From Pelecanus crispus (taxonomy: Eukaryota > Chordata > Aves > Pelecaniformes > Pelecanidae), in assembly GCF_030463565.1 (NCBI RefSeq), contig NC_134675.1, positions 16,575,862 to 16,639,861 on the forward strand: a stretch of 64,000 bases of DNA. The letters are read 5' to 3'. Every line of letters starts with the position of its first letter. Position 1 is the stretch's first letter. The position numbers and the translations under genes were made by a program. Positions 150-62,774 of this stretch are shown here, piece after piece. The notes beneath the pieces are model-generated. The model was not told the DNA's origin, did not search any database, and saw only the letters and a list, made by a program, of their open reading frames with translations.

Positions 150-344
150 TTCTGAAGGCTTGTGGGGCCTGCAGGCAGGATCTTAACACTGAGGAGTTGT
201 GGAAGAAGGTGCTGCAGGAGGTAACTGTGGAGGAGCTGCAGGCACCTTTGCACTGACTGGGGGGGCCTGCAAGGAGCATGGTGGCTGGCAGCCAGCCGCC
301 TGGGAAGCATCGCTGGCCTCTTCAGGCTCCTGAGCAATGCTGAG
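150..344 (+). pseudogene. FANCG: FANCG exon block 1, with nonsense codon and frameshift
   Basis: The block begins after a T-rich acceptor (AG at 148-149) and ends before GTAACT. It matches human FANCG around residues 115-170 (EELWKKVLQE, then WWLAASRLGS). A TGA at 254-256 stands where the family has Arg, consistent with CGA to TGA deamination. The two matching parts are in different frames; removing one G from the seven-G run at 259-265 would align them. It ends in phase 0. Confidence 0.85.
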
Positions 345-1998
345 GTAACTGGGCACAGGTGGATGCTGCACAGCTCCTGATTACCTGTACTGGAGTATCT
401 GCCTGCTGGTACCACCCCTACAACTCTGGAGTGTGCATTAGCCGTCTTCTCTTAGTCTTGTGGGATCCTTAAGCCAGCTATCCCTCTTCTCCTGCTGGTC
501 TTGTAGCCTGATTCGCTCCATAGCTGGCACTTGAAGGCTTTTCTGGGCAAGTCAGGTGTTTTGCACCCAAGCCACATGTGGGGTGAGTTGTTTGGGTGGG
601 TGTGAGCCAGCTTGTGTGCTCTGCCTTGAAGGAAGAGTGTCCGAATTACTTGCTGGTACCAGGAGCCCTGTTTAGTCTGTTGGCTGAGAGGGGCTTGTAT
701 TTTGCTTTCTTGCTGTCACTGGGAGTTTCCAAGTAGTCACAGTGTGTGCCTGTCGTGGTTTAGCCCCAGCCAGCAACTAAGAAACACGCAGCCGCTCGCT
801 CACTCCCCCCTACCCCGATGGGATGGGGGAGAGAATCGGAGGAGTAAGAGTGAGAAACACTCCTGGGTTGAGATAAGAACAGTTTAATAATTGAAATAAG
901 GTAAAATGATAATAATATAATAATGATAATAATAATAACAATATACAAAGCAAGTGATGCACAATGTAATTGCTCACCACCCGCCAACCGATACCCAGAC
1001 AGTTCCTGAGCAGCGATCGCTGCTCCCCAGCCAACCCCCCCCCCCCCCAGTTTATATACTGAGCATGACATCATATGGTATGGAATAGCCCTTTGGTCAG
1101 TTTGGATCAAGTATTCTGGCTGTGCCCCCTCCCAGTTTCTTGTGCACCTGGCAGAGCATGGGAAGCTGAAAAGTCCTTGACTAGCATAAGCAGTACTCAG
1201 CAACAACTAAAAACATCAGTGTGTTATCAACATTCTTCTCCTACTAAATCCAAAACACAGCACTATGCCAGCTACTAGGAAGAAAATTAACTCTATCCCA
1301 GCCGAAACCAGGACAGTGCCCTAGCTATGTCTGTGCAAATATAAATACCCACGGGTTTGCTAAAGGAGGCAGAGCTGGCATAAATACCGTGCTTGTCATA
1401 AAACCCACTCTGCAAAATGTTGCTGTGGCATTTGGAGACCTGAACCCATCAGTGCTTCCCAGTTAGCATGAGTAATCCTCTCCCTGGTGTCCCAGCATAG
1501 TCTAATGGCCCCGAATGCATTAATGGGTCCCAGAATATCTCCTGCCTGCCAGGGCCCTGGACCTCAAAGGTGCCAGACAGGTGACTTGGGCAGGCTGGAA
1601 GGGGGCTGCAAGTGGACTTTTGCAGCCTCTGTAGGGAGTAAGCTGTGAGCAGTGTGACATAGAAGAACCTTCACTGCTGATCAGGAGGGCCAGGTTGCAT
1701 CAAGGCTGCTGAGGGGTCTCACCTTTTTGAATGCCCTCTGACAGCACTTGGATCTGCCTTGCCAGGAACCTCTTGAGGTGCACCTCACTCTGAGGTGGGG
1801 AGGTGCTGCCCTGGGCCAGGCAGGAATCACTGCAGCGAGTGGGTTGTAGTTGAAGTGAGAGGGTGGTAGGACATGGCTCCCCAGTGCAGAGAGCACTGTC
1901 AAAGGGTTTGGTGGGACCTCTGTTTCCCCATGCCCTGGGATCAGTGTTTCCTGCTTCCCTTCAGAGTTCCCTGCTCTCTTTCCTCTGTGTATTCACAG
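345..1998 (+). other. FANCG intron carrying a solo LTR
   Basis: This interval separates two FANCG exon blocks. It holds one complete antisense solo LTR (751-1315) described separately. I see no other gene or structured feature in the rest. Confidence 0.6.
751..1315 (-). mobile_element. Solo LTR, family 1 (ERVL-like), copy 1
   Basis: The element begins TGTCGTGGTTTAG and ends GGACA, with a perfect 5-bp target duplication GTGCC at 746-750 and 1316-1320. The sense strand is the minus strand. It carries an (ATT)n-like tract near 905-950, a C-run at about 1036-1049, the TATA box (TTTATATA) near 1051 and a decayed CRE (TGACATCA, 1066-1073). The 5-bp duplication fits class III (ERVL-like) integration better than the 4 bp typical of gammaretroviruses. 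There is no internal retroviral sequence, so it arose by LTR-LTR recombination. Confidence 0.93.
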
Positions 1999-2152
1999 AA
2001 CCTGGGGAGAGCTGACTGCAGCAGCGGGGAGAATGAACTCCTCTTCCTGCTCAATGCATGGTGAGTGCCTGCCAAGAGGGCCTCCGTGCCCCTTATACAG
2101 AGCGCTGAGGACTTGAAGGAGATCCTGTGCATTGCAGTAGCCTTTCTGCAAG
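1999..2152 (+). pseudogene. FANCG: FANCG exon block 2, with nonsense codon
   Basis: The acceptor is AG at 1997-1998 and the donor GTTTGC at 2153. The translation runs LLFLLNAW, stop, then IQSAEDLKEIL and AVAFLQG, parallel to human LLLLLKTW and LQDAQGLKDVL. The in-frame TGA is at 2062-2064, directly after the Trp codon. It could derive from a TCA serine codon by one substitution. Confidence 0.88.
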
Positions 2153-3290
2153 GTTTGCGTGGAGGAGGAAGTCATCTTGGCATGGCCTCCTACTGTTCTC
2201 CCATCCCAGGGCCCTCTCTCCCTGCCCTTATCCTGATTGCTCTTCCCAAGCAAACCGTCCCTTGGGGTTCTCTGGGCTCTTCCTTTGGAAGAGGGCCTGG
2301 ACTGAGCCTCTGGGTCTCGACTTTGCTGTTCAGTATTCAAAGAGCTTCTCTGCTTTTTCCCCAGCTAAGCCTTTCTCTGCACTGTCACAGGGTTCCTCTG
2401 CCTGTCTGTGGCTTTAGGTAGGTGTCTGGGCCCCACAATGATCTTGTATAAAGTGGAAGGCTGGCGGGGGGCTTATGAGGATTTTCCTTTCTTCTGTCTG
2501 TCTTCTGGCACCTGCCTTGTTGCAAGTACATTGTTCCCACTGGATTATGGTGCTGCTGGAGCCATGCAAAGCTGTTGTGCAGCCTTGTAGCCTGGTATTG
2601 CAGCAGATGATTGATCTCATCTGACTGCTGCATTCTGTCCCACTCGTGGTTTTCCCTCGCTCGCTGTCTTGACAACCCCTGCAGCTCCAGGGGCAGCCAG
2701 CGCTGCCTTGCTGTGCTTAGGTTGACATGGGGCCTTCCCTCGAGAAGCCTCTAGGGTGGCGATAGTGCTTCCAGTGGGGCGGTGGCAAATGTGAATGTGA
2801 TGTGGGCATGTGAGAGTGTCCTCAGAGGGAAGCTTGAAATGGGGATTGAAAGAAAGGCAAATACCATTCATGATAAACATACATTAATTAATATCCCAAA
2901 GCATCCTGCTGGGTAATGGCCCAGATGTGCTAGAAAAAGTCTTTCTGAGATTCTGTGTGTGCTTCCCCATCTGCACTGCCTTTGCTGCGCATGAATGCAC
3001 AGGTGGGCCTGCCCAGCACCTACCTCTGCCCTTGTTCTGGGTGAAGGCAGGCATCTTGGTATCTGGGCTTGGAAGCTGCTATTATTTTTGCTAGATGTTG
3101 TGGCTTGTTCTCTTGCAACATCATCAAACCAAAGATGGCAGCTTGGCACCATCCTGCTGTGCATTGCTGGGTATGGAGGGGATCAAGCAGGTCCCTATGG
3201 CACTGGGAAGAAAAGGGCACGTATGCTTGTTTGGGGACCAGGTGGGGTGGGAAGGGGAGCTGCAGAGCTGAGATGTTGGGTCTGTCCTAG
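2153..3290 (+). other. FANCG intron, nothing recognised
   Basis: The interval lies between two FANCG exon blocks in matching phase. I see no repeat with clear ends, no exon-like block and no RNA gene. Confidence 0.5.
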
Positions 3291-3420
3291 GGCTGCAGGA
3301 GCTGGAGGCTAAGCATCTCCCCACTGCCCTCTCTCTCTTCCAGGAGGCTGTGGAAGATTATGTTCCAAGAGGGTCCTGGTCCAGATCTACACCTGCCTCG
3401 GCTGCTGCGCTCAGCGAATG
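3291..3420 (+). pseudogene. FANCG: FANCG exon block 3, with 1-nt deletion
   Basis: The exon follows TCCTAG (AG at 3289-3290) and ends before GTAATGG. It encodes LQELEAKHLP ... FQEAVEDYVPR and then, in another frame, VLVQIYTCLG, matching human LQELITGNPD ... VLVQVYTALG. The exon length of 130 nt leaves the phase one short of what the next exon needs. This supports a single-base deletion near 3368-3372. Confidence 0.87.
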
Positions 3421-3808
3421 GTAATGGCCGGGCCTCTCCCCTGTCAGTAGGGAGAGGGGAAATGCAGCCTAGAGTGGAATGGGGAGGCTCAGGCTGATGT
3501 CCACGCTGCCTCTGTGTGGTCCTAGGCTGCTGCAGGAAGGCTAGGTCTTGAGCAGAAGTTGTCCTTGTGGCCCCAGCCTCCTTGGGTAAGGAGGCTGCAA
3601 AATCCAGACAGGGATTTTGTCTGAGCACAAAGGGTTGCTGCAGAGAGAGAAGCTCAAAAACCAGCCTGAGGAGGGCTGCCTTTGGCTAAAGTGCTGCCCT
3701 TGCTTAGTGGAGATCATTGGGGAAGCAAAGCAGGGATCTGGATCCCACTGAACAATGAAGATGTCGGCAAGATGTCCTTGCAACATGCACCTCTTCCCAT
3801 CTATCCAG

Positions 3809-3954
3809 GGCAAGCCTCAGACAGCCCTTCAGCACCTGAAACAGGCCCTCCAGGTAGACTTCCAGTGCCTTCCTGCCCTGTCCCACGTGGCAGCAGTGTA
3901 TCATGAGCTGGGGGAGACTGATGCGGAGCTGCAGGCCTTGGCTCTGCTCTACGA
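3809..3954 (+). pseudogene. FANCG: FANCG exon block 4 (TPR), open frame, weak donor
   Basis: The acceptor CCAG precedes GGCAAGCC. The translation GKPQTALQHLKQAL ... YHELGETDAEL matches the human TPR segment GNPQRALLYL ... YQQLGDTTAEL. The required phase puts the donor at 3955 as GTTTTG, a poor match to GTRAGT, so splicing of this exon may also be impaired. Confidence 0.87.
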
Positions 3955-4793
3955 GTTTTGTCTGCTTCCTGTAGTTCTGGGTTGATTTTTGCCCAGCAGA
4001 GCCTGCACAGAGCTTCAAGCAGGCTCCTGCCTTCTGGGGGCCTGTTTTACCCTGGAGGTGTCCCCAAAGTAGACTACAGCAATCCAGCTGTGATGCTGCC
4101 TTCAGCAGCGGGCAGGAAGGAGCCCAGCTAGATCCAAAATTCCTGCTCAGCACCTGGCTGTTGGATGTGGCAAGACCTTTGGGTCCCAGTTCACGTTCTT
4201 GGTGGCTTGGGAGAAGACGTTACACTCCTGTGTCAGAGAGTATCAGTCTCTTAATAAAGTATCTAGTAAAGAGACCTTTAAAAGGCAGATTATGGCTGTG
4301 AGGTGTGCATTACCCATAGCAACCTTGGTCTGCCTGGGAGGAGCAGGTCGCAGCAGTAGACACTGAGTTAGCTCTTCAGCTTTTCAAAATCTGTAAGATA
4401 CAAACACAGCTGTGGAGAGGGATCTCTCTCATAGTGAATGGCCCAAGATCTGGTCTAACTAGGTCTGCGGCTGTGATGGGAGATGCTGTTCCAGGCAGCT
4501 CAGAGCACCTTGAACTGAAAACCTGAGGCACCATGTGCTCTGGGTGATCTTGCATATCTCCTGATGCTGTGTGGCGAGCAGAAGTCCGCCTGTCCCTGTG
4601 TGATCCTGATTATTCTTCCTCTTCCTGGAAGCAGCTGTGCTGTAGTGAGTGAGAACAGCGTAGTTGTGCTTCTGAAGTGCATTGCTTCTGCTCATCTGGG
4701 TGCATCTCCAGATGCCAGAAATGGCAAGTGATTGCAGCTGCTTGAGACTTGACCAGAGTTGTGTTGACCATATTGTCTGTTCCTGTTTCACAG
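3955..4793 (+). other. FANCG intron, nothing recognised
   Basis: No repeat boundary, exon-like block or RNA gene is apparent between the flanking FANCG blocks. Confidence 0.5.
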
Positions 4794-4955
4794 GTTCTGG
4801 GGAAAAAACCCTCCAGCAGCTGCTTCCTCTAGTCCATATTTCCTAATCCAAACAGAGCTCTTTGTCCACACACCAATACTAGCTTCTCTCCTTTGCCATT
4901 GCCACCCCTCTGAAGTGAAGTACCTGCTGGCACAGCAGTGTCTCCAGGACGGGAG
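4794..4955 (+). pseudogene. FANCG: FANCG exon block 5, open frame
   Basis: After CACAG (AG at 4792-4793), the phase-consistent frame reads FWGKNPP ... FLIQTELFVHTP ... KYLLAQQCLQDGR, matching human FLIEVELLLPPP ... HILASRCLQTGR. It ends before GTAACA in phase 2. This block itself carries no lesion. Confidence 0.86.
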
Positions 4956-5185
4956 GTAACAGCACCTCTGGTCTGCTTGTAACATGCTGCTTGTTTAGGA
5001 TCTGTGGTTTTCTCTGTGCTCCTGGAAATCGCATGGTTCAGTACCACTGTTGTAGGTCTGCTCGAGTCATGGGTATCACGACCAGAGCGAGTGTGGTGCA
5101 GGCTGGCGATTCAGGTTCCACCTGGCTGCTGGTACTTCTTAGGGTCCCCCTGCTCCTTCCACCACGTGTCCTGTCCCTGTTGCAG

Positions 5186-5252
5186 GGTGGCTGATGCAGT
5201 GGAACATTACCTGGATTTTCTGGCTCTGCTTCAGGAGGGGCTGCAGCAGCAG
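5186..5252 (+). pseudogene. FANCG: FANCG exon block 6, open frame
   Basis: The acceptor is TGCAG (AG at 5184-5185) and the donor GTAGGT. It encodes VADAVEHYLDFLALLQEG, matching human GDAAEHYLDLLALLLD in the same phase. Confidence 0.9.
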
Positions 5253-5732
5253 GTAGGTATCTTGGTGAAGAGCTCCCTTGGTGACTTGGTAGATGAGGTT
5301 TGGATCTCCATCCCAAGGCCTGGGCCCAGACTTCACCCCTGGACTCCAGGTTTCAGTGTCTAGTTTGAGATGTGAAGGAAATGAGGTGGGGGCTGGCACC
5401 TCTGACCTGTGGCATGTCTGCCTTCAGATTCACACCAGAGACTGCTTGCCACTAATGTCTGGAGAAACAGCTTCCCCTTCCCTGTGGGGAGCAGCTGTTG
5501 GCCTGGTTTTGGATGTCCTTCACTTCAAGAGTAGGGATTTGCCTTCTTGACTCTGCTGAGCTGTTAGTGCTTCACAGCTGCTGCCTCCTCTGACAGGCTC
5601 CCATGTCTTTGGGAGTGGGTCTGAGCTTTGCTGGGCAGCATCTCTGGGTTCCCAGTAAGCACAGGGTCATTCTGCTTGGCTGGGTGCTCTGCAATTCTGT
5701 GTCTGAGCACTGCCATTGCTCTTGCTCCTCAG
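5253..5732 (+). other. FANCG intron, nothing recognised
   Basis: The interval lies between two phase-compatible FANCG exons. I see nothing further in it. Confidence 0.5.
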
Positions 5733-6068
5733 GTATCCCTAGATGGTGGCTCAGCTCTGCCCAGGATCCCCGAGGTGTTCCTGGAAGCAGCGTCCGCCTT
5801 GGAGCAGGCCAGGAGGCACCAGGACGCCATAACTGTGTGCGAGGAGGTCATCAGCCAGATGACTGACCTGATCCCACGGATGTTACAAGTGGAGAAAAGG
5901 CTGGAGCAGCTGGAGTACCCATCGCCAGGGGCAGGGCTGGTGGGTGGACTCCTGTCCCAGAAGAAGGAGAGTGTGCTGCCTCATGTGGAGAGCAGCTGGA
6001 TACCTGCACCAGGGCTGGGTGTGGGCCAAGCTGGGCAAGAGCAAGGAGGCCATAGCACAATTCAGCAG
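5733..6068 (+). pseudogene. FANCG: FANCG exon block 7 (TPRs), frameshifted
   Basis: The frame opens after CTCAG with [20 protein letters not shown] and VCEEVISQMTDL, matching human [20 protein letters not shown] and LCEELLSRTSSL. The conserved second half (HQGWVWAKLGKSKEAIAQFS versus human [20 protein letters not shown]) is in the +1 frame. The shift lies near 5978-5980. The exon ends AG before GTGATG. Confidence 0.9.
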
Positions 6069-6224
6069 GTGATGAAGCCTTGCTGGGAGAAGGGGCCTCC
6101 CCAGCAGGCAGCAATGGCTGACATGGGCCAGAGCAGGGTGCAGCGCGGCAGCTGGTCTGACAACTTGCAGCTGACTTCCCAGCCCGAGGGTGGTACCAAA
6201 GCTCCTCTGTCCTCCCACCCACAG

Positions 6225-6280
6225 GTTTCTTGGCGATCTCTTGCAAGACCAGCTTTATGGGTCTGGTGTTGAATCGACAG
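6225..6280 (+). pseudogene. FANCG: FANCG exon block 8, last before the ERV
   Basis: The acceptor is ACAG at 6221-6224 and the donor GTAGGA. It encodes FLGDLLQDQLYGSGVEST in the position of human CLELLFRATPEEKEQG. The next human exon (around RGLEWVASGQDTKALQDFL) has no counterpart before block 9. The retroviral insertion and its surrounding deletion lie exactly there. Confidence 0.78.
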
Positions 6281-6442
6281 GTAGGATGCTGAGCAGCTGG
6301 GACCTGTGCAGGGCCTGGCTGTGTCGGGAGGCACCGAACCTGGTGAGTCTTAAATTTGCACTTCAAAATTTTAAATTCTGGTAAAATAGTGCACTAAAGG
6401 AGGATTGTGTGGCCTGATCAGCATAAGATGTAAAATTTTAGA

Positions 6443-6700
6443 ATGAGAAATAAACCCGGCATAGAGAAGGGGATGCCCTTAGCCGAGGTTTTAGAAAACT
6501 GGAAGAAAATAGATGGTATTAAAGGTCTATCTAAAAAAAGCCCCAAAAGGATGGTAACGCTATGTAAGGAAGACTGGCCAGCACTTACAGGAGAGGGGGT
6601 ATGGCCCTGCGAAGGATCCTTCGAATTAAAGAAATTGTCTGCACTCTGGAAAATTTTGAAAAATGAAAGACCTCAGCAAATGGATTATTGGTATGTATAG
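6443..6700 (+). pseudogene. ERV-A gag, matrix-like fragment
   Basis: The 85-residue open frame starts with a Met and has the features of a gammaretroviral matrix domain: an early PLAEVLENWKKI helix segment, TLCKEDWPAL and a WPCEGSF motif, comparable in position to the ANW, WP and GTF motifs of that family. The frame stops at 6698-6700 after DYWYV. Further gag (a proline-rich segment) continues in pieces to about 7450 with several stops. Confidence 0.72.
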
Positions 6701-7379
6701 GATTATTTGGCATATGACTGCCATAAAGAGGACGGTCGAAAAGGAGTATGAAAACCTCGAGGAGGAACTTGAGCTGCAGCAGTTGTGAGTAATTTAACCG
6801 AGGTGCCTGCAGAGCCGGTCTCTGCACCACCCTATACTCCTCCATCTGTATCACTTGTTGATTCCCCCCCCAATTGCCTCTGCTGTCCCCACTGCTTCTG
6901 CTGGGCTTTACCCTATGGTTTCTAATGTTATCCCTAATCCTCTTGCAATGCAGGTGGGGGGTGGGGGTGTATGTGTGTGTGAAATGTTCCTCCTCCACCT
7001 CCAGTGTTACATGTATACATCCATCACCCCTGGAACCCCAGGGATTTAGTCATGTAGGGAAATCAAATGCCCAGGTTAAGGGAAGATGTGGGTTGATGTG
7101 CATCATTATTTTCTAATATTTGTTCGGGATATAATCCATCCTGGGCCGATGTTAACCTGTTATTGAGAGAGTTGTTCTGTCCAGATGAGAAAGATAAGAT
7201 AATTTAAAAGAATGCAGAATTAACCCTACAGGCAGGAGGAAATCGGACTGCCTGGCCTCAGGTTGATCCTAATTGGGATTATAATAATCAAACAGATAGA
7301 GATAATTGCTGAACTGGGGGGGGTGGGTGTGTGTGTGTTAGAAATCTGATAAACGTGATTAGAGCTTGTGAGGAGATAA

Positions 7380-7600
7380 GAGTAAATTGAACTAAAGCAC
7401 AGGAACGTAGACAGAGGCCAGGGGAACACCCCAGCGACTACTGGGGAAGATTGTGACAGGCTTTGTTGACGTATGGGGGAATGACTCTCCAGAATTTTAA
7501 TAATGAATTGGCAACAAGTGTGTTTGTGGACCAAACCACCTCTGACATCCACAGCTATTTTAAGGATCACATGCTGGGGTGGCAAGGAGAAAATTTGAAA
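7380..7600 (+). pseudogene. ERV-A gag, capsid C-terminal fragment
   Basis: Around 7415-7590 the translation shows RRQRPGEHPSDYWGRL, then a stop, then a segment with Phe-Val-Asp-Gln-Thr-Thr and SDIHSYFKDHMLGW. This resembles the C-terminal capsid region of gammaretroviral Gag. It runs directly into reverse transcriptase sequence in one frame, so nucleocapsid, protease and the first part of RT have been deleted. Confidence 0.55.
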
Positions 7601-8410
7601 GATATTATATTACCTGGAGATTCTATACTTGTACAATATGTAGATGATTTCTTACTTTCCAGTAAGACATGTGAAGATTGCTTGAAAGATACTATTTGTC
7701 TATGTACTGCTTTAGTGGAAAAAGGTCACTGTACATCTCTTTCTAAGCTTTAGCTGTGTCAGCAGGAAGTAAAATATTTAGGATTCATATTAAAAGAAGA
7801 ACAAAGATTAGTAGACACAGAACAGGTCCAGGCTATTGTAGAAATACCTCGACTGGTAACAAAGAAGCAACTGTGAGGATTTTTAGGTGCAGTAGGATAC
7901 TGCAGACCCTGGGTACCGGGGCTAGGGGAGTTAAGCAAGCCATTGACAGAAGCTACCAAGGCAAAGGAAGTGAAACCTATATGTTGGGGTCCAGAGAAAG
8001 AAAAGGCTTTCCAAGCTATAAAAGGAGCTTTAGCTTCTTCTCTGGCACTGGGATTGCCAGATTACTCCAAGCGCTTTGAACTATTTGTGCATGAGAACAA
8101 AGGAGTAGCCAGCAGAGTCGGAGTAGCCAGCAGCAGTCAGCTAGGTCCACACACCACCCTGTGGCTTATTACTCAACTCAACTGGATCCTGTAGCAGCAG
8201 GGAATAATTCCTGTGTTAAAGCGATAGCAGCAACAGTGACTATCGTAGAAAGCAGCAGACCATTAGTCCTGGGTCACCCAACAACCGTGTACGTCCTGCA
8301 TGAAGTAGAACTGATTCTTAAGCAAGATGCTACACAAGCATTGTCCCCACAAAGAGTGCATCACTATGAATTAATGATTTTAAATGTGGATAATATTACT
8401 TTAAAATGAT
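7595..8410 (+). pseudogene. ERV-A pol, reverse transcriptase (palm to connection)
   Basis: The catalytic motif YVDD is at 7637-7648, followed by a thumb-like region (KYLGFILKEEQR) and connection (AFQAIKGAL, FELFVHENKG). A stop at 7751-7753, another at about 7875 and frame changes break it. RT fingers are missing. It belongs to the same inactive provirus. Confidence 0.85.
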
Positions 8411-8539
8411 GTAATGTTTTGAATCCATCGACTTTACTGCCTGCTCCCTCCAATGGTGTGCCGCATCATGATTGTGCTAAGGTAGTGTTTCACTCCAGTC
8501 GCCTATGGGAAGATCTGCGGGATCAACCTCTAGAGAACT

Positions 8540-9156
8540 CGGATCTAACCCTTTTTACCGATGGATCTTCATACTATGTGAATGGAAAATGACACACAGG
8601 CTATGCAGTGGTGAGAAACTTAGAGGTACTTGAAGCAGAACCTCTACAGCCCTTGGTGAGTGCCCAAGGGGCTGAATTAACTGCATTAGCAAGAGCAGCC
8701 TGGTGGGGATGTAATCAGCAGGTAACTATTTATACTGATTCTAAATATGCTTTTGGAGTGTGTCATGCAACAGGTATGCTATGGAAAGAAAGAGGGTTCC
8801 TTACCTCGGTGGGAAAAAATATTTCTAATGGAACTGAAATCCAAATGCTGTTGGAAGCTATTAAGCTTCCAAGGGAAATCGCTGTAGTACACTGTCTAGC
8901 TCATACCAAAGGATCCAGCGAAACTGAAAGAAATAATGAATTGGCAGATAAAGCTGCTGCCCGCCAACCTATACATGAGTGTACCGCCATAGCAACTCCC
9001 TCTGCTGATGATTGGCCAGATATCAATAATCCAGCCCAAATATATGCAGAGGTTACTCAGGAAGAACGGGCTCGATGGGAAAGTTGGGAGGCTGTGAAAG
9101 ATGAAACTGGAATTTGGACTATTGGGGAAAACCCATTTTACCAAGAAAATATTTAA
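8540..9156 (+). pseudogene. ERV-A pol, RNase H
   Basis: The four acidic signature positions of retroviral RNase H are visible: the Asp of FTDGSSY (about 8557), Glu in GAELTAL, Asp in YTDSKYAF and Asp in NELADKAA. A TGA at 8590-8592 interrupts the first strand; the remaining 182 codons from 8608 are open. Confidence 0.88.
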
Positions 9157-10202
9157 TGACTTTGGCTAGGTGGTTTCATGATAAAACACATGGAGGGATG
9201 ACAGCAGTTGTTAACCAGATTGAGAAAATGTGGGCAGCCCCCAGAATACATATGACAGTAAAAAGGATTGCGAGTTCTTGTCCCACATGTTGGAAGCTTT
9301 CTGATGCAAAACCCAAACAGAAGGTTGGAGGATGACCATGGGCATACTTCCCATTCCAAAGACTGCAAATTGATTATGCTGACATGCCTCCTGTGAGCGG
9401 ACTTAAGAACCTGCTGGTAATCATGGATCAACTCTCAGGATGGGTAGAAGCTTTTCCCACCAGGAAAGCTGATACTGTGGGAGTGGTCAAAGTACTCTTG
9501 AGGGAAATCATTCCTAGATACGGAATACTTGAAACCATAGAATCCAATAGGGGTTCTCATTTTTCAGCGGGAATACTAAACAATATCTATAAAAGTTTAT
9601 GAATACAGCGACAGCTACATGTTCCATATCATCCACAGTCCTCAGGACAGGTGGAAAGAATGAATAGGACTCTTAAAAAATAAAATTGTAGTCAGGTAGG
9701 TTTGAAATGACCTGAAGTTTTAGGAATAGTGCTATGGGATATTAGAAATACCCCTCACCAACCTCTAGGGTTGTCACCAGCAGAAATAGTGTTTGGCAGG
9801 CACTTAGCTGTACCTGGGACCTTTGTCCCCGCTAGGACCAGCCTCTTAGATGGAGATGAATGAGTTACCAAATTTGTATTGGGAATACAAAAACATCTAC
9901 AAGAAAATAGGGCACAAACCAGATGGTTTCAACCAGTACCAGCTGGAATACAAGTACATGATATCCAGTCTGGAGATGCAATAATGATAAAAGTCCACTC
10001 TCACAAAACAAAGTTGGACCCTAAATGGGAGGAACAGTATAATGTGTTATTATCTTCTTACTTTGCTGTAAAGGTTGCAGAAAAGGATAACTGGATTCAC
10101 CACTCTCATGTTAAACATCAAGAACATCAGTTAGATGTACCACCGTCAACCCTGCAGGACTCTGTCAGTCCTACCTTGGAGACTGAAATCAGGACCATTT
10201 GA
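9114..10202 (+). pseudogene. ERV-A pol, integrase
   Basis: The HH-CC zinc-binding domain is recognisable (FHDKTHGG, then CPTCWKL). The catalytic core has the first Asp (LQIDYAD) and the Glu of SGQVERMNRTLK. The second catalytic Asp is replaced by Asn (ESNRGSHF, codon 9546-9548). Stops occur at about 9331, 9600 and 9680. The C-terminal LSPAEIVFGRHLAVPGTF segment precedes an open stretch to 10202. Confidence 0.88.
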
Positions 10203-10644
10203 GCTTACAAAGGCTGAAGGAATCCCAGAACCATGTCATTTTTGGTTTTTTTCTAGAGCGACCTGGACCAGGGAGTCACCTGCTGCTTGGCCAAGTGGAC
10301 CATCAGAGACTGTAAATCAAGGACAGTGTCCTATTTGGTGTATTCACCATCCTTATAGAGTGGCAGTCACTCCAGGCTCAGTTCCAAGAGGGGAAGGTTT
10401 GAGATGGCATCAGCACAGTTGGCTTTGGTTATCCTGCAATAATTGTGGCCCATGTCATCCTGGGTGGTGTATTAATAACTGTTATAAAGGTCGTTGGGAA
10501 AACCATCATCGAGGTTGGGGCTGGGGAAATATAACCAGAAAAGGCACAGCTGGATACATAAACTGGTGCTGTGTGTGCAGGTGGCACCAACCGCCCAGTG
10601 AAGAAGACTTAGCCGCAAGACTCAATGTTTTATTATTGGATTAA
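10135..10644 (+). CDS. Cys/Trp-rich open frame between pol and env of ERV-A
   Basis: This 169-codon frame overlaps the end of integrase by 68 nt in another frame and stays open although the rest of ERV-A is broken. It contains clustered Cys and Trp (CPIWCIHHPY, SCNNCGPCHPGWCINNC, WCCVCRWHQ) and no evident signal peptide or membrane segment. The position is where gammaretroviral env usually begins, but I do not recognise an envelope domain. It may be a rearranged env leader, an accessory frame of this ERV family, or chance. Function unknown. Confidence 0.35.
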   Translation: MYHRQPCRTLSVLPWRLKSGPFELTKAEGIPEPCHFWFFSRATWTRESPAAWPSGPSETVNQGQCPIWCIHHPYRVAVTPGSVPRGEGLRWHQHSWLWLSCNNCGPCHPGWCINNCYKGRWENHHRGWGWGNITRKGTAGYINWCCVCRWHQPPSEEDLAARLNVLLLD

Positions 10645-10800
10645 GATTATCTTCTTAAGATAGGAGTGGATTACCCTAGTTCTGGTATTAACCCTTCTTT
10701 GTATAGGTGTTTTGGTTCTTTTTCTTTTATACATTTGGTTGAAAACAGCGGGCAAACCATCGCCAAAATGGGCTCAACCATGTGTTGACAACCCCATTCT

Positions 10801-11171
10801 GTGAGAGTTATTCTCAAAACTGTGTTAGTACAATACCTTTCTTTACTGCTTTTACTAATACCCCCTGCTCTTAGTTATAAGGAACACAATTCCTTTGTGT
10901 CATTGGCCCATCACGTGGCCAACCTAACTACTGACAAAGGAGCCCAAAATGCATACAGCTCCCCTGAAAGTGGTTACAAAACTTGTTCTCTGGATGGGGA
11001 TTATCATCATGGTTTAGTAGTTTTAGTTCATTGCTAAAAAGTCTTTTACCTGTGGTTATTATGCTTCTGATAGCCTGCTGTGTTTTTACTTGTATTCAGG
11101 ATTGTTTACAGAATATGCTTATGAAATCTATACAAAGGTATCAAAGAGTCCTCATACAAGACCAACTATAG
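10801..11171 (+). pseudogene. ERV-A env, collapsed: leader plus membrane anchor and tail
   Basis: A frame at 10801-11037 begins with a typical hydrophobic signal peptide (SLLLLLIPPALS). The overlapping frame at 10983-11171 contains a transmembrane anchor (LLPVVIMLLIACCVF) and a cytoplasmic tail resembling the end of gammaretroviral TM. Nearly all of the surface subunit and the TM ectodomain are absent, so the glycoprotein is deleted. Confidence 0.7.
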
Positions 11172-11207
11172 ATGGGCAGGGATGCCTGAAAAAAACAAAG
11201 GGAGAAT

Positions 11208-11657
11208 TGTTATAGGAGTTTGATTAACTGTATTCTTCTCTCTGAATAGTCTCGCTTAGCACTAGTAGCTAAAGCTAGGCCACAAGAGCTGACAGAGAGT
11301 AAACTTTTTGATAAAACTAATGCTGCTAACACAGAACTAGCTGAATCCAGCAGATGCAAGCAGAATGAAGACAAGGACTAAGGAAACAAGTCCAAGAGAA
11401 TGAAGTAACTTCAGAAGGCGGCCAGCCCAGTGACAAAGAAAACCAATAAGAAATCAAGAGACCACTGACCAGAATTAAGTGATTGGACTTGGGGCTTGGG
11501 TGCCGGGTGGTATGGGTGTAATTGGAGGGTGCGATCTGGGGTAGGGGTCCCTCTCTGGAGGCACCCAGCTCCAGCTGTACCTAGAACTAGTAAAAGAGGA
11601 ATTGGAAACCTTTATTTGGACCTTGTTATGGTGGCTGGTGGGTGTAAATCCATAACA
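11208..11657 (+). repeat. ERV-A 3' LTR (proposed ends)
   Basis: A purine-rich tract (AAAAAACAAAGGGAGAAT, about 11189-11207) is directly followed by TGTTATAGG, the usual polypurine tract to LTR transition. The end is set at CATAACA, which gives a length of 450 bp. No canonical AATAAA was seen, and there is no second copy to compare with. The 3' boundary is therefore uncertain. Confidence 0.5.
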
Positions 11658-11787
11658 GGAACAGAGAGGCTTTCCACAAATTTTTCCTGGGTTGCTTTGC
11701 CGTCTTCAGCAGAAAGGTCTCATGTTTTAGACCACACTTATTTGAATGCCAAGGACTATAGCAGGGCTACTAGTAATGTTACATAGA

Positions 11788-11932
11788 GATGCTCCTGTGG
11801 GGCCTGGTCAACTCGCTGCCCTGGAGAAGCAGATCAAAACTGCTGTCAGAGGAGTATATCGGAACCCTGCCCACAACCTGTGCCCTGAGACAGCTTGGAG
11901 GTTTCTCTTCTTCCTGCCCAAACCCAAGCCTG
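11788..11932 (+). pseudogene. Unassigned TPR-like exon-sized block
   Basis: A block bounded by ACATAG and by GTATAG has an open frame with LEKQIKTAVRG, NPAHNLCPETAW and FLFFL, which has the look of a tetratricopeptide helix pair followed by a Pro/Lys stretch. It does not match the FANCG exon expected here. It could be a fragment of another TPR gene (a SKI3/TTC37-like protein is a weak guess) carried in by rearrangement, or coincidence. Confidence 0.25.
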
Positions 11933-12562
11933 GTATAGCCAGCTTTCTCCCAAAGAGGGTCTGCTTTCCCAGAACAGAGGCGCTGGAGAAATGGAGTCTT
12001 GCTTCATCCCAGAAAGTGGTGTGTCCGTACCTAGCGGTCCAGAGGCCAAGTATGGAGGCCTGTCAGGGGAGAGGGGAGTGAAGCAGAGCAGGGAGCTGTA
12101 TGTATCCTGAGCACAGCCCAGGCATGGATAGTGCTGCTCCCAGGGGTGACCCCTGGGCACTTGGGCCAGCCTCCCCTGTTCAGTGCTCCACCCGTGCTGA
12201 TACACTATGGGAGTGTGAGCTTTGCCAGGATCTGCCAAACCTGCTGGTCCCAGTCCTGACCGAGGCTCCCTCCCTTTGGGGGTGCAGACCTGCCTGCAAG
12301 GAAAACCCCAACCCGTGTCCAAACAGAGGTGTGGCTGGCTGTGCCACAGGGCTGATGCCATCTGCCTTGGCTGCCAGCCCCAGGGTTAATTAGAGCCTGT
12401 GACACAGCTGGGATGGTCTCCTCCCCATTATGCCACCTCTCCTCATGCTCAGCTCCCTCATCTGGCTTCTAAGCTTCTTTTTGCAACACCCTGCAATCCA
12501 CAGCAGTGCTGGGGACCTGCTCCTCCCCTGCTAAGGGCTGAATCCCCCTTCATGTCTTGCAG
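11933..12562 (+). other. FANCG intron remainder, nothing recognised
   Basis: The stretch between the ERV-A side and FANCG block 9 shows no repeat ends and no exon-like block that I can support. Open frames here lack any recognisable protein pattern. Confidence 0.4.
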
Positions 12563-12695
12563 GTGACTCAGCTGCTGCCTCCTACCTGGTACAGGCCCTG
12601 TGGAAACTGAACCGAAAGCAGGAGGTGACTGCTCACCGGCAGAAGTTCTCCCAGAGCCCCACTGGGGAGGATGGGCAGCAGGAAGAGCAGGGAAG
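12563..12695 (+). pseudogene. FANCG: FANCG exon block 9
   Basis: The acceptor TTGCAG is at 12557-12562 and the donor GTGTGT at 12696. The open frame reads SYLVQALWKLNRKQEVTA, matching human [20 protein letters not shown]. It then has a Gln/Glu-rich segment in place of human WWRLEAQTKGSQED. It ends in phase 2. Confidence 0.87.
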
Positions 12696-13001
12696 GTGTG
12701 TAGAGGGATGGGTGGGATCTCAGCTGGCCACACAAGACAGCTCCAGCAGCGTAGCCTGTGTTTCAAACTGCGGACAGTTTAGCTCTACTAGCCTACACCC
12801 ACAGCTCAAATGCGTCTGAGGAGCTTCCCCCCATGTCTGCTCTGAGAGACCATGGGCTGTGGCTCTGCAGGACTCCCTGGGGCACAAAAGAGCTGACATG
12901 GAGCCAAAGCCTGGTTCTGTGATGGCAAATGGGAGGGCGGAAGCTGGGGGCAGAGCTGGGGGCTCTGTGCAGCGCATGGAGAGTGAACTTCCTAGTCAGA
13001 C

Positions 13002-13590
13002 TGTTGCCTTTAAGTAGTAGATTTTGTTATACTAATGAAATATGGTCCTATGCCTTTAAGTAGTAGATCTTGTTATACTAATGAAATATAGTCCTTGAGT
13101 AGCAGTGAAGTAATGCATATTTTGCTACATTGATAAAATGTAAGAAGGAAGGGAGGATGGCTAAGCGGCTGGTTGCTGACCTTCAAAGATAAGGGGATGG
13201 CAGAACAAAAGGGGCATGCACAAAAATAGGAGAAACTGGGTAAGAGGTAATTCGGGCAGGGGGAGATTGCGACCACCGACCCAATTAAGGACTGAAGCAA
13301 GTACCCCCCACGCTCCTCCTGCACAAGCGCAGTGAATTAAAAAGACACTATAGCTTTAAAGACTATGCGAGTAAACTGTTAACCAATGAAGATGAGTGCA
13401 CAAAGACAGGTTAATGATTATGTATTAGAAAGGTGTAGAGATTGTATATTCAATGTATAAATAAGGGAATAGAATCTGAACTTGGTGTGCTTGATTTGTG
13501 GAATTCTTCCACCTTGCACCCTGCGCAGAATAAAGCAATATCTCCTTTCAAAACCATTTTTGGTTTCAGGAGCTTTATTTCCAGGTAACA
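13002..13590 (+). mobile_element. Solo LTR, gammaretrovirus type, with 46-bp tandem repeat
   Basis: The element runs from TGTTGCCTTT to GGTAACA and is flanked by a perfect 4-bp duplication AGAC (12998-13001 and 13591-13594), the length typical of gammaretrovirus-like integration. The 5' part has two 46-bp direct repeats (13005-13050 and 13051-13096), as in enhancer repeats of U3. ATAAATAAGG near 13456 may be the TATA region, and AATAAAG near 13529 the poly(A) signal. It lies in the last intron of the FANCG remnant in sense orientation. Confidence 0.85.
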
Positions 13591-13630
13591 AGACCATGAC
13601 AAGGGAATGCTGCACTCTCTTCTCTTTCAG

Positions 13631-13748
13631 GCCCTTCCCTTTGTACCTGGTTTTATGTCTGAAGCAGGTGACCTTCCCACACAGTGAATCTCTTGCCAGA
13701 AGCATACAGGATTACCTCAGGACTACAAGCCGGGACCCCTCGAGCTAA
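13631..13748 (+). pseudogene. FANCG: FANCG terminal exon
   Basis: After CTTTCAG the phase-2 frame gives FPLYLVLCLKQVTFPHSE and ends at TAA 13746-13748. This parallels the human C-terminus LPLYLESYLSWIRPSDRD and what follows it. The block is open; its loss of function follows from the upstream lesions. The VCP CpG island starts about 600 bp downstream. Confidence 0.88.
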
Positions 13749-15102: not shown

Positions 15103-40235
<25,133 letters not shown>

Positions 40236-44080: not shown

Positions 44081-46169
44081 GTATATTTTTTAAAATACTT
44101 TATTTTTTTTTCCTCTCAATACTGACATTACAAAATTAAAAAAAAAAAAAAATTACAAAACAACCCACTATAAAACATTCAGGTCTCATTGAAACTGAGA
44201 AAAACAAAGCAGCTTGCATCTGCGCACTGACCTGTCTTCTCGCTCCAGCAATGTCCACCAGGTTTCTCTATGTCGAACTCCACAGGGACTAGTGGAGGGA
44301 ACCAGCGGTGTCCCCTCACTGGTCAAACGGGGCAATAAATTAAGCAGTGCCCATGTGTTCCCCCCCCCCCCCCCCCCCCATATGCCAGAGCCGTGGCACT
44401 GGCCGGCCTCCTGGCTGCGTACGATACAATGGACAGCTGTACACCTAGCCCCGATGGATGCCCCATGTGCAGCCCCCCCCCCAAAGGACCCCCTGTTTCA
44501 AGTCAGTGATTCCTCTTTTTAAAAAAAAAAAAAAAATAGGATTCCCGGGGGGGGGGGGGGGGGGGGGGGGGGGATATTGTGGCAGAGGTTTTCTCAGTGG
44601 TCCTGTAGTGGAAGAAGAGCCGTACAAAGCCAGGTCAAATGCACCTCCCACTCCGTAGACGCCCTTCCTGGGAAAAAAAAATGGCATGAGGCAGAGTGGG
44701 CCAAGAAAGGTAAGAACTATAAAAATTCTCCTGATGGAAATCCAAAGAGTTTTAAAAAATTTAAGCATTTAAAACCAAAGCCAGATTGCCTCATGCGCCT
44801 CCCAGCTGCACCCAGAAATACCTCCTGAATGAATTGTCTCTGTAGAAAAATATATACACATGCATTTCTCTTCCTAGTAAAATCCCAAAGGTTGAATGCA
44901 AATGCTAGTGAAAAACCACAGCTCTGCTCACGCTTGACTCTGCTTTTGCAGCCAGGCTTGTGATATGCATGCGTACATGCACATACACAGTGCACCACTC
45001 CAGGAACCCCAAAACAGGCAGAGAAACACCCTTATGGAATTTATCTAACAAGCTCTCTCTCTCTATATGTATATATTAAAAAAAAACAAAAAACAAAACA
45101 GCAATGCAAACTCAACACATTTGAACAAGAAAGCTCCATCTTGGGCTTTCTCCCCATTCTGCTGGCTGGGGCTCTGCAGGCAGCAGGTGCTGCCCACAGG
45201 TACCAGGGACAGCCCCAGCCCTGGGCAGGGGCAGGAGGCTGGATGGGACTGTCCCCAAGTGCTCTGCACTCTGTTGTTTGGCACAGCTGAGGCTCAGTTG
45301 TAGGCTTGGCACAGGAGAGCGGACCATGGTTGGGCTAGGTACTGTGGTCCCAAGTTAGAAACAGTCCGGCTCCAGGGGGGCCACGGTGGGCAGGAGCGAT
45401 CCCACTGCCCTACGTGTGTGGGACAGTCTCCTTGGCACCACGGTTACAGCTGGGACCCTGAACAGCAGCAAGTATCAAAGAGGGGAAGAGAAAACTAATA
45501 GCGGGGATGTGAGATCCTGTGGAGTCCTATTTACACTGTGCTGAACCCTGACAAGTCCAGCCTCTCGTGGGAAAAGTGGCCTTAAAAGCAGGTGACATAA
45601 AAACCCAGAATGTGATGTATCTCCCTGGGCAAAGGGCTCATGCTGCTTGCTTGTGCAAGGCAGAAAAGCTGGACCTCTGGGGAAAAAAATAAAAACTTTG
45701 GCAGCCAGGAGAGCCATGATGGGTAGGGCAGGACCCTCCCTGCTGCCGGAGTAGAAAAACAGGCCAAGAGGGATTGGGGGGGGGGGGCGGGGTTGGATGG
45801 GAATTTTGGGAAAGTGGTGGTGGTTGGGAGGGGAGGTTTGCATTTGAAAGTGCTCTAGCACCTCTGCTCCGTGCAGGCCAGATGCTGCGGCTTGTGTTTT
45901 TGGAGTATTGCTGCTTGGAGGAGAGTCCCCAGGCTCTAGGAGCATGGGAGGTGCTGCTTGAGGATCTGTCTCGTCTGGGGAGCTATTCTGTCCGGGAAGC
46001 GGATTTTGAACTCCACAATCAGGTCTCCTCGCTTGCTGGGGGCCTTGGGGAAGGGCAGCCCCTCTCCGCGCAGTCTCTTCACTGTCCCCGGCTTGATGAT
46101 GTCATTGCAGGGCAGCGGGATCACCCGCCCATCGATGGTGGGAATGTTCACGGTGCAGCCGCATAAGGC
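44081..46169 (-). CDS. DNAJB5: DNAJB5 last exon: coding end (45936-46169) and 3' UTR
   Basis: DNAJB5 (HSC40/ERJ-type class B J-protein) is an HSP70 co-chaperone. Codons on the minus strand from 46169 to the stop at 45936-45938 give 77 residues beginning ALCGCTVNIPTIDGR and ending RQILKQHLPCS, nearly identical to the C-terminus of human DNAJB5 (end of C-terminal domain II and the dimerisation segment). The acceptor is CCCCACAG, directly 5' of 46169 on the minus strand. The 3' UTR probably runs to the reversed AATAAA at 44099-44104 (about 1.85 kb). The position convergent to VCP matches human synteny. The J domain, Gly/Phe region and domain I exons are not found; they may lie in the N gap or be lost. 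Confidence 0.95.
44099..44104 (-). terminator. Poly(A) signal of DNAJB5
   Basis: TTTATT on the + strand is AATAAA on the minus strand, about 1.83 kb after the DNAJB5 stop and followed by a T/A-rich stretch. Confidence 0.55.
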
Positions 46170-48932
46170 CTGTGGGGAGAATGGGGGGGGGCACACTGTC
46201 AGACTGGGCTCCCACCCAAAAGCATCCCCGCCAGCCATGCCACTGCACCTCGTCCCCCCACTGGCTGCTCCCTGGGTTAAACTGCCCATCTCTGTTTGGA
46301 TGATGCCTATGAGCAGAGTGGTTGATGCTCACCAGGGCAAGTCCAGGTCTGTACTGGTGCCAGCCAAACTGGGCTGCAGGAGCCATGCAGGAGAGGGGTG
46401 CCCCAGGAGAGGGGTGCCCCAGCTTCATGGGGGGAAGGACCCCCTTCCCCATCTCCTGGGTTCCCTGGGAGGCACCACCAGCAAGCACCCCGGCCACTCG
46501 CAGCAACAGGACAAGCTAAATTTAGCCTGGACCCTTCCCCAGCCTCATTGCCCAACCTTGGGCAGCCAAAAATCCAGCTGAGATCATCGGATGCCACAAC
46601 GGTTCATCAGCTGTTGCCCTCTGGAGCCTGGCAGCTCTGCCCAGCGCTAGGGGTTATCTATAGCACAGCCCACATCATTCGTGTCGTGTGGTCCCGTCCC
46701 CCCCCCCAACAGCCCCCAAAAGGTTATGCCGGCGTGGGATAGCGGTGCAGCCACAGCACAGCACTGAGCTTTCCTGTAAGGCGAGGTCCCAGAGGGGCTG
46801 GCCCCCATCACTGGTCCCCGTTGCAAAGCCAAGAGCCAGTTTCATGGGTGCAGCAGCTGGGGCAGTGGGTGTTGTGGCAGCCGCAAGCTGGCCTGCATTG
46901 GAAAGCCACGTGACATGGGAATGCAGCAAGAAAATCCTTGTGTCCTTAAATAACTCAGACAGCTCTGGCATACACGTGGGCAGGATCATCTCCAGGCTTT
47001 CGACAAAGGCTGAGGGAGAGGACTGCAGAGTGATGCTTTGGGGGGGGGGGGGGGGACGACAGGAGGGGGTTTGCCGGGGGTACAGCCTCGAGCTTCCCAG
47101 GCATGAGGCTGGCACAGGCTTGTCCCTGCCTGGCACACACTAAGCCCTCCGAGCTGGGTCCTGGGGGTCCCAGCCCTCCCATTCTCCCCCCCACCAAACA
47201 CCCTGCAAAGGAAGGGGAAGAGGATGCGATTTGCTGTTTCTGAGTTAGATGGGGGGATATTCTGCATCCCCCTTCCCCAGGAAAAGCCTCTGGTGGCAGA
47301 GCAGCAACAGGCACCAGGAGAAACATCTCTTCTCATGCTGGCCACTGGCTCAGGGCCGAGTTGCAGCTTCTGTGGCTGAGCCAGGGCTTTGCACCAGAGC
47401 GATCACAGTGGGACCCGTGCTGAGCCAGCTCTTGGGCTCCAGTGAGCGGAGAACAGGAGAGCTGGGGCCATCTTCTTGCACAGCTCCTCTGCACGAGGTC
47501 TCCTCCCAGGAAGAGCTTTTCTGGCTGCAGGAGGATGCCCATTGCCAGCTCCATGTGAGCAGCAAGTGCTTGGCTGGATCTCCAGCAGGTTGGGGGGGAA
47601 GTGAAGGATGATCTTCCCACATCAACGCATTTCTGCCCCACACTTGCCCAAGGATGCTGGAGCCCTCCTGCTTGTTGGTGCCCACTGTCATGCACCATGG
47701 AAGGCTGCACAGGTCCACATGTGCCAGGGAAAGGACATCTCCAGCCATAAAATAAGAAGGAGAGTGGGAACTCCCTATGGGAGCATATGGACAGGGCAAG
47801 CAGAGGGATGCGAGCAGGAGGTAACAACGAAGGCAGATGGGATCTTAATGTTTCCTTCCTAAAGCCAAGACACAAGAACCAGAAGCGATCACTCCTCCAC
47901 TGTATGTTCCTGGTTTTCATTCTTCTTGCCCAACTTCATTGGCATTTGGGAAACTGGTTGCTGAAGTAACACCAGTAACCGCGGGAGTTGCCCTGCATCC
48001 TAGAAAGAGGCTCAGTTTATCCCTAGGTATTAAATCACCATGGGTTTGATAGCTGAGCTCTGCACTGCACTGAGAGCTGAGCTTTATCCAGGTCAGCAGT
48101 GGGTCCTCCTCTGCTTGCAGTGAAGCCGGGGGAGGGGGAAATGTCACCACTGGTTGCATCTCAGCCGGTCCTGATGTGTGGCTGCTTTGAGGAAGGTGAT
48201 GGCAGGTAATGGATGCAAAGCAGGCAGCTGCCGAGGGCAGGCATTAGGCAGGCAGCTGGGCGGGCACAAGCCCCTGCTGGCAGTGCTGCCTGAAGATCTG
48301 CCTCCCAGGAGAGGCAGCTGCTGGCGGAGCAGTGTCATTCCTCCCTCTCTCGACCTCCCACTGCTTGCGCACCTGTAATTTTAGGAAGGGACACTTCCCA
48401 GTAGCCCATGAGCCTCTGGGGACGCCCTCTTACACCTCTGGCTTCTGCAGCAGCCGGGCAGCAGCACCCACCGAGCAGCAAGCACCCCATGCCATCCCGG
48501 CTGGGGGGATGTGGCACCCAGAAGGGTCAGGATGTGAGCACTGGGAAGGGCACTGCCTCCCCAGGTTGCTCTGCAGAAGGGTCTGTGGGACAGAGGAGGA
48601 GGATGCTCTCCTGACTGCCCCCAGCCTCCACTTGCTGCTCAAAGGGCAACTCTGGGCAAGAGTCCCTCCAGCCTGAGCAGTGTGTGAACCTGGACTAACA
48701 TGGTCTGGACATCAGGACAGCCAGCTTGGGGTTAATTTTACAGATGGGGGAATGCACAGAAGGAAATATCTGAGATATGGCATGCATGACTCCATAAATA
48801 AGGCAGCCTCTCCTGAGTATTTCTGGAGTGGCCAGGGGATCCAGCCACCACAGGAATAAATCTCTGCACTTTGCACTGTGAAGGAAGTTCATCTCCTGAG
48901 TCTGCAGGTTAACTTGAGATGTGTTTGCTCCA
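46170..48932 (-). other. DNAJB5 last intron side, up to the assembly gap
   Basis: This is 2.76 kb 5' of the last DNAJB5 exon on the minus strand. I looked for the J domain HPD motif and for C-terminal domain peptides and saw none. No repeats with clear ends are present. Confidence 0.6.
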
Positions 48933-60305: not shown

Positions 60306-60884
60306 TTATCCATGTCAGGCAGGAGTTTATCCCATAGATCTGGTCTGCTGGAATACACTTGTTCAGTAGTGGTTAGACAGTCATGTTGCAGTTCATCAGA
60401 TTTGGAGACTGGGAGTAAGGTGGCAGGATTCAAGGTGGAGGTCAGAGAAAGTGTGACATCATCTTGTTTGAGTAACACAGCCTGATATCTTGCTAACCTA
60501 TTTGGGGAAATCCAATGATGTCCCTTATTTTCAAGGAGAGATGATACAGGATGAGGTACAAACACAGTAATTGGTTGATCCAATGTCAGTTTTTGAGATT
60601 ACAGTTGCCGCTACTGCCCTCAAGCAGGCGGGCCAACCTTTGTTGACCTCATCCAATTGTTTGGAAAAATATCCCACTGGTCTCTTCCAACTCCCCAACT
60701 TTTGTGTCAGCACTCCCAACACCACTTGTCTTTCATGTACATATAATTGAAAAGGTTTGCTCAAATTCAGGAGCCCTAAGGCAGGGGCTTCCATTAATTT
60801 TCTCTTAATTTCATCAAAACTTTTATGGCATTCTGTCATCCATTCTAAAATTCCCTCAGTTCCTTTTCTAGCCGCATATAATGG
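60306..60884 (-). pseudogene. ERV-C pol, RT connection to RNase H start
   Basis: Minus-strand codons give SFDEIKRKLMEAPALGLL and KPFQLYVHERQ (end of thumb/connection), a frame change, then LNPATLLPV in the later frame just before RNase H. It is the continuation of the RT at 61462-62528, separated by a solo LTR. Confidence 0.85.
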
Positions 60885-61456: not shown

Positions 61457-61461
61457 AATGG

Positions 61462-62528: not shown

Positions 62529-62537
62529 ATAAAGGAA

Positions 62538-62774
62538 TTAATGAGTTAATGTAGTATCTCCAGTCGAGAGCTCCATGGGTTGTAAGAACGGCCTTAAAGT
62601 TCTTTTCCCTGTAGCACCAACGCTTACCTTAGTCTTACTTAAGGGTCCCTTAGAACTAGTTACTACGGAATGAGTGGCCCCACTATCAATGAGAAAATCA
62701 ACTATTTCATTCCCCAGTTTAACTGGAACCAGAGGATCAGCTAGGGAAGCTTTAATAGATTCCTCCAGTCCTCT
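62538..62774 (-). pseudogene. ERV-C protease
   Basis: In the same frame as gag and pol, the minus strand gives the aspartic protease segment KLGNEIVDFLIDSGATHSVV with the catalytic DSGA. A TAA at 62538-62540 separates it from RT. Confidence 0.88.

What the first reader, a model, noticed from the sequence alone, without database searches (positions are those of the whole stretch)
150..13748. FANCG is dead beside a perfect VCP: W-linked copy or lineage loss?
Ten FANCG exons are recognisable, yet they contain TGA at 254-256 and 2062-2064, frameshifts near 260, 3370 and 5979, a missing exon and an ERV. VCP 1.4 kb away keeps all 806 codons. Known background: in birds this region is Z-linked, and to my knowledge VCP is among the few genes retained on the avian W, which is ERV-rich. 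Inference: this may be the W copy. Alternative: real loss of FANCG in the species.
Basis: partly seen in the sequence, partly recalled or inferred. Interest (0 to 1): 0.85.

Follow-up and report, generated by a model that had tools for sequence, protein, structure and literature searches.

The report
Dead W-chromosome copy of bird FANCG
This stretch of bird DNA most likely comes from the female-only W chromosome, where the DNA-repair gene FANCG has decayed beside an intact VCP gene; it is an ordinary outcome for a W chromosome, and it gives a new case for dating how such genes die.

Summary
Ten FANCG exons (4-11, 13, 14) are present with introns. They carry two in-frame TGA codons (254-256, 2062-2064), three frameshifts (259-265, about 3353-3364, about 5970-5976), no detectable exon 12, and a degraded retrovirus between exons 11 and 13. 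VCP, 1.35 kb away, keeps all 806 codons.

The W reading is the best supported; loss of FANCG in the species is not. The dead copy is at most 85% identical to the bird FANCG proteins listed (120 of 374 hits) and changes conserved sites (4 of 80 invariant columns; living copies 0.37%). It groups (98/94) with damaged FANCG copies from a godwit and a crane, whose order and genus also have normal FANCG. Trees that put those two copies in their own lineages are rejected jointly (p-AU 0.033; p-SH 0.062), not singly. Published work puts VCP on the W of chicken, turkey, duck and flycatcher, and says strata S0-S2 are shared by all Neoaves.

The own genome could not be searched (24 requests unanswered), so an intact Z copy and female-only coverage are untested. 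This is a new member of a known kind: a W gametolog pseudogene.

The parts
150..344 (+). FANCG pseudogene exon 4: in-frame TGA at 254-256 and one extra base in a G7 run at 259-265
   Evidence: compared with bird proteins
1999..2152 (+). FANCG pseudogene exon 5: in-frame TGA at 2062-2064
3291..3420 (+). FANCG pseudogene exon 6: frameshift at about 3353-3364
3809..3954 (+). FANCG exon 7, open; junction with exon 8 is in frame
4794..4955 (+). FANCG exon 8, open
5186..5252 (+). FANCG exon 9, open
5733..6068 (+). FANCG pseudogene exon 10: frameshift at about 5970-5976
6225..6280 (+). FANCG exon 11, open
6345..11640 (+). Degraded endogenous retrovirus (ends approximate, read by eye); exon 12 is not detectable between exons 11 and 13
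   Evidence: RNase H frame 8608-9153; no LTR pair found; exon 12 absent
12563..12695 (+). FANCG exon 13, open
13631..13748 (+). FANCG exon 14 with its stop codon
15103..40235 (+). VCP, 17 exons, 806 codons, intact; introns 22.7 kb in all
45939..46172 (-). DNAJB5 last coding exon only; upstream exons not found before the window end
   Evidence: tblastn with a recalled human DNAJB5
746..1318 (-). LTR copy in a FANCG intron (same family as 19659-20233, 28587-28877, 35084-35655, 59297-59502, 60884-61454)
60534..63548 (-). Retroviral RNase H, reverse transcriptase and gag p30 reading frames beyond DNAJB5

Best explanation
The window is a piece of a neoavian W chromosome. Z and W stopped recombining across the FANCG-VCP-DNAJB5 block early in Neoaves (inferred from the tree and from the published sharing of strata S0-S2; that this block lies in one of them is not shown). 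After that the W copy of VCP was kept by purifying selection, presumably because its dose matters in females (the published argument for W survivors). The W copy of FANCG was not needed, because one good Z copy is enough for a repair gene whose loss is recessive (inference; the recessive behaviour is recalled). It gathered substitutions, stops, frameshifts, an exon loss and retroviral insertions. The species is expected to keep a working FANCG on the Z.
For: Lesions of several kinds in one gene next to an undamaged neighbour. Introns are retained, so it is not a retrocopy. Loss of constraint: 4 of 80 invariant columns changed against 35 of 9392 (0.37%) in 117 living copies, Fisher p 3e-4. End branch 0.24 against a median of 0.09, unresolved among neoavian orders. 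The window copy, Limosa P0254 and Grus japonensis P0245 form a clade at 98/94 among 37 living FANCG proteins. P0254 is 88.3% identical to the window copy but 80-83% to three living Charadriiform copies and at most 85.6% to any of 117 living copies. Putting P0254 and P0245 both in their own lineages costs 39.5 log units, p-AU 0.033. VCP is W-linked in four published birds. Strata S0-S2 are shared by all Neoaves (PMC10891136 passage). LTRs and retroviral frames are frequent in the window, as on W chromosomes (PMC8310711 abstract). Chicken FANCG is Z-linked and male-biased in expression, as expected without a working W copy (passages).
Against: No direct proof of W-linkage: the own genome was not reached in 24 tries, so no Z copy and no coverage by sex. 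The contigs of P0245 and P0254 are not shown to be W either. P0245 is 84.7% identical to the window copy but 84.2% to Grus americana and up to 87.1% to other living copies, so its place rests on shared residues, not on overall likeness. Tested singly, neither alternative placement is rejected (p-AU 0.128 and 0.248; 0.223 and 0.49), p-SH of the joint test is 0.062, and the bootstrap had not settled. The three-row group was named after the sequences had been seen. P0102 (Cephalopterus), otherwise normal, also shares four rare residues with the dead copy. The contrast at conserved sites rests on few changes: four invariant columns; in the three most conserved classes 35 of 343 changed against a living maximum of 8.4% and median of 2.9%. 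FANCG is not among the five W pseudogenes named for flycatcher.
Confidence: 0.88

Rival explanations
1. True loss of FANCG in this species: the window is the Z (main) copy, and the Fanconi core complex lacks FANCG.
For: The gene is clearly dead here and no intact copy from the same genome could be shown.
Against: The 120 listed bird proteins, from many neoavian orders, look intact, and the dead copy shares at most 4 rare residues with any of 117 of them. It groups with damaged copies from a crane and a godwit although the crane genus and the godwit order also have normal FANCG. VCP is a published W survivor.
Confidence: 0.05
2. An old autosomal segmental duplicate of the FANCG-VCP-DNAJB5 block, shared by several neoavian orders.
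For: It would give the same tree and allow an intact VCP.
Against: It needs a duplication that none of the passages seen reports, whereas a W copy of VCP is published in four birds. Dense retroviral insertion is typical of W (PMC8310711, abstract).
Confidence: 0.06
3. Assembly or sequencing error in a living FANCG.
For: One frameshift lies in a run of seven G; a 200-base gap shows that the assembly is not finished.
Against: Two stops, two frameshifts outside long homopolymers, a missing exon, a retroviral insertion and at least 15% protein divergence from the 117 compared copies cannot all be base-calling errors; VCP has no frameshift or stop in 2.4 kb of coding sequence.
Confidence: 0.01

Closest known systems
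W-linked pseudogenes of collared flycatcher (IFNB, FCHO2, SMC2, NTRK2, HOMER1; PMC4468903, passage)
   Same: Genes with internal stops or frameshifts among intact W survivors
   Different: FANCG is not on that list; the present case sits directly beside VCP and groups with damaged copies from two other orders
VCPW (chicken, turkey, duck: PMC4278454 Table 1 passage; flycatcher: PMC4468903 Table 1 passage)
   Same: An intact VCP is expected on the W; branch omega of VCPW is 0.03 in PMC4278454
   Different: W-linkage of the VCP in this window is inferred, not mapped
Crested ibis and duck W pseudogenes (PMC10891136, passage)
   Same: 10.6% (36 of 339) of ancient-W genes in ibis and more than 40% in duck are said to be pseudogenes, so the kind is common
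   Different: The main text of that paper names neither FANCG nor VCP

Membership tests
Avian W gametolog pseudogene | Female-only sequence coverage | not testable with these tools
   No reads by sex available
[not shown]
   The genome search 'own' unanswered in all 24 tries
Avian W gametolog pseudogene | Groups by gametolog across species rather than by species | tested here: met
   Clade 98/94 with damaged Limosa and Grus copies; joint alternative p-AU 0.033 but p-SH 0.062, single alternatives not rejected. The W-linkage of those two copies is itself inferred
Avian W gametolog pseudogene | Disabling lesions in an unprocessed (intron-bearing) copy | tested here: met
   Two stops, three frameshifts, exon 12 not found, introns kept
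Avian W gametolog pseudogene | Selective constraint lost | tested here: met
   4 of 80 invariant columns changed against 0.37% in living copies, Fisher p 3e-4; small count
Avian W gametolog pseudogene | Neighbour known to survive on the W | tested here: met
   VCP intact; VCPW published
Avian W gametolog pseudogene | High density of ERV and LTR sequence | tested here: inconclusive
   Six copies of one LTR family and two regions with retroviral frames in 64 kb; total density not measured
Processed pseudogene | No introns | tested here: not met
   Ten separate exons with splice sites

The most novel reading that the evidence does not exclude
FANCG on the W stayed alive for a time after Z-W recombination stopped and then died separately in different neoavian orders. 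The window, crane and godwit copies share stem substitutions, but the window's exon-5 stop aligns with arginine in the crane model, and the window's exon-10 frameshift is absent from the godwit model. If so, the order in which W genes died can be read off lesion by lesion. The crane model skips or ends at the places of the other lesions, so those could not be compared.
Probability: 0.35. Interest if true: 0.5.

Novelty: new member of a known kind. Interest (0 to 1): 0.38.

Why it matters
It explains an apparent loss of a core Fanconi anaemia gene without loss of function, and it warns that W contigs can be misread as gene loss. A dead FANCG 1.35 kb from a living VCP is a clean contrast for the idea that dose-sensitive genes survive on the W. 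The three damaged copies give a way to time Z-W arrest and gene death across Neoaves.

Tried and rejected
Identifying the species: the best hits of one retroviral reverse-transcriptase reading frame were Grus japonensis (84% over 88% of the query, and 87% over 56%), with a Rhea (67%) and Mycteria (74%) between them (120 of 895 hits listed). That is not enough to name the species, and annotated ERV proteins are biased towards a few genomes.

A possible broken donor at exon 7 and a frameshift at the start of exon 8 were considered and dropped: exon 7 ends GA|gt and exon 8 continues in frame. A reading frame at 11808-12080 gave no useful PDB match (best E 0.59). P0251-P0253 were considered as further W copies and left open (no names given). 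A dating attempt from changed invariant codons was dropped: the count is 4 and any rate would be recalled.

My first count at invariant columns (8 of 84) was inflated: on checking, four of the eight were exon-6 residues that I had read out of frame beyond the frameshift. With five such residues masked it is 4 of 80. The same five residues were in the queries; with them masked the best identity rises from 83.8% to 84.6% and the end branch stays 0.24 (quick tree). They do not enter the columns (tests). The worst living protein at invariant columns, P0089 (6 of 87), has its changes in one short stretch of an odd gene model. I lowered the W confidence from 0.90 to 0.88 for this and for the likeness of P0245 to other living copies.

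Full report
Observation. tblastn with a recalled human FANCG placed exons 4-10 in the first 6.2 kb. Exons 11, 13 and 14 were found by splice sites and frame, and exons 11 and 13 were confirmed with bird peptides. The read-through matches human FANCG in the PDB at E 4.1e-64. Exon 4 holds TGA at 254-256 and an extra base in a G run (259-265). Exon 5 holds TGA at 2062-2064. Exon 6 loses frame at about 3353-3364 and exon 10 at about 5970-5976. A published chicken FANCG primer (PMC2821371, passage) reads ...CCTTTGCACC where the window reads ...CCTTTGCACTGA, so the codon after CAC starts with C in chicken and with T here. Exon 12 cannot be found with the human peptide or a bird peptide (31 against a shuffled mean of 34.8; exons 11 and 13 score 67 and 178). 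A degraded retrovirus with an RNase H frame (8608-9153) lies between exons 11 and 13; no LTR pair was found there.

Neighbours. VCP spans 15103-40235 in 17 exons with usable splice sites and 806 codons; 798 of 806 residues equal the best PDB chain, a human-like VCP (one search counted 799 against my recalled sequence, which was wrong at residue 649). Only the last exon of DNAJB5 was found (45939-46172, minus strand), and none of its upstream exons in the remaining 17.8 kb, which holds a 200-base gap. So the next gene is either cut off or has a very long intron.

Divergence. The read-through found 374 proteins, of which 120 are listed. Three duplicates were dropped before counts, leaving 117. 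With five exon-6 residues that had been read out of frame masked, the best identity is 84.6% (Mycteria) and the lowest 76%; among the 120 living proteins the median nearest-neighbour identity is 93% (duplicates included). At 80 columns invariant among the 117 the dead copy differs in 4 (5.0%); living copies differ in 35 of 9392 (0.37%) on a leave-one-out count; Fisher p 3e-4. Over the three most conserved classes it differs in 35 of 343 (10.2%); the living median is 2.9% and the maximum 8.4%, in Dromaius. With 50 of the 120 proteins its end branch is 0.24 against a median of 0.09, and it sits unresolved among neoavian orders (quick repeat).

Other damaged copies. A search with exons 7-10 only, which excludes full-length proteins by length, gave 19 hits. 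Two matter. P0254 (Limosa lapponica, 358 aa) joins a CR1-like reverse transcriptase to FANCG exons 9-10. P0245 (Grus japonensis, 348 aa) lacks parts of several exons. On 111 shared columns P0254 is 88.3% identical to the window copy and 80-83% to Pluvialis, Uria and Rissa; its best living match is 85.6%. On 202 columns P0245 is 84.7% identical to the window copy, 84.2% to Grus americana, 86.2% to Pluvialis, and at best 87.1% to a living copy; so it is not a normal Grus FANCG, but overall it is no closer to the window copy than to some living ones. P0254 and P0245 share 4 and 6 rare residues (at most 3 of 117) with the window copy. Under a laxer cut-off (at most 4 of 117) the highest counts among living proteins on the same columns are 2 and 4, both from P0102 (Cephalopterus), and otherwise 1; 109 and 97 of 117 share none. 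P0102 may be convergent or a mixed assembly; I do not count it as a W copy.

Trees. With 37 living proteins the three damaged copies form a clade at 98/94, though the bootstrap had not settled. The tests made there gave p-AU 0.49 (crane copy with Grus americana) and 0.223 (godwit copy with Charadriiformes). With 21 living proteins and model LG+G4, forcing both placements costs 39.5 log units (p-AU 0.033, p-SH 0.062); singly they are not rejected (godwit 0.128, crane 0.248). The grouping is therefore well supported but not proven.

Literature, seen as passages or abstracts only. VCP is listed on the W of chicken, turkey and duck (PMC4278454) and flycatcher (PMC4468903), where a figure legend gives VCP as a gene whose Z-W recombination ceased after the flycatcher lineage split off (from chicken, by the context). 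S0-S2 are shared by all Neoaves (PMC10891136); I did not find which stratum holds VCP. [quoted passage not shown] FANCG is Z-linked in chicken (PMC1876622), 1.73-fold male-biased in gastrulating embryos (PMC2821371) and higher in testis in a way that the authors say may reflect double Z dose (PMC3170287); this fits the absence of a working W copy there. Searches for FANCG with 'W chromosome' and 'avian' (3 papers) and with 'W-linked' (2 papers) gave four different papers; the passages on FANCG that I read in all four mention no W copy.

Mechanism and verdict. Shown: the gene is dead, its neighbour is intact, conserved sites have changed, and the copy groups with other damaged copies. Inferred: W-linkage, early arrest of recombination, survival of VCP by dose, and dispensability of FANCG-W. 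The decisive checks (read depth by sex, a second locus) could not be run, because the genome search was unanswered at all 24 tries.

Noticed in passing
746-1318, 19659-20233, 28587-28877, 35084-35655, 59297-59502, 60884-61454: Six copies of one LTR family in both orientations, three of them in VCP introns
   Followed up: partly
22253: VCP intron 3 uses a GC donor
   Followed up: no
48933-49132: A run of 200 N marks an assembly gap
   Followed up: no
26077-26465: A 165-base direct repeat, two copies 224 bases apart and 90% alike, in a VCP intron
   Followed up: no
45939-46172: DNAJB5 appears with its last exon only
   Followed up: partly
P0102 (Cephalopterus ornatus FANCG, not in the window): An otherwise normal FANCG shares four rare residues with the dead copy, two of them adjacent; convergence or a Z/W mixed assembly
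   Followed up: partly
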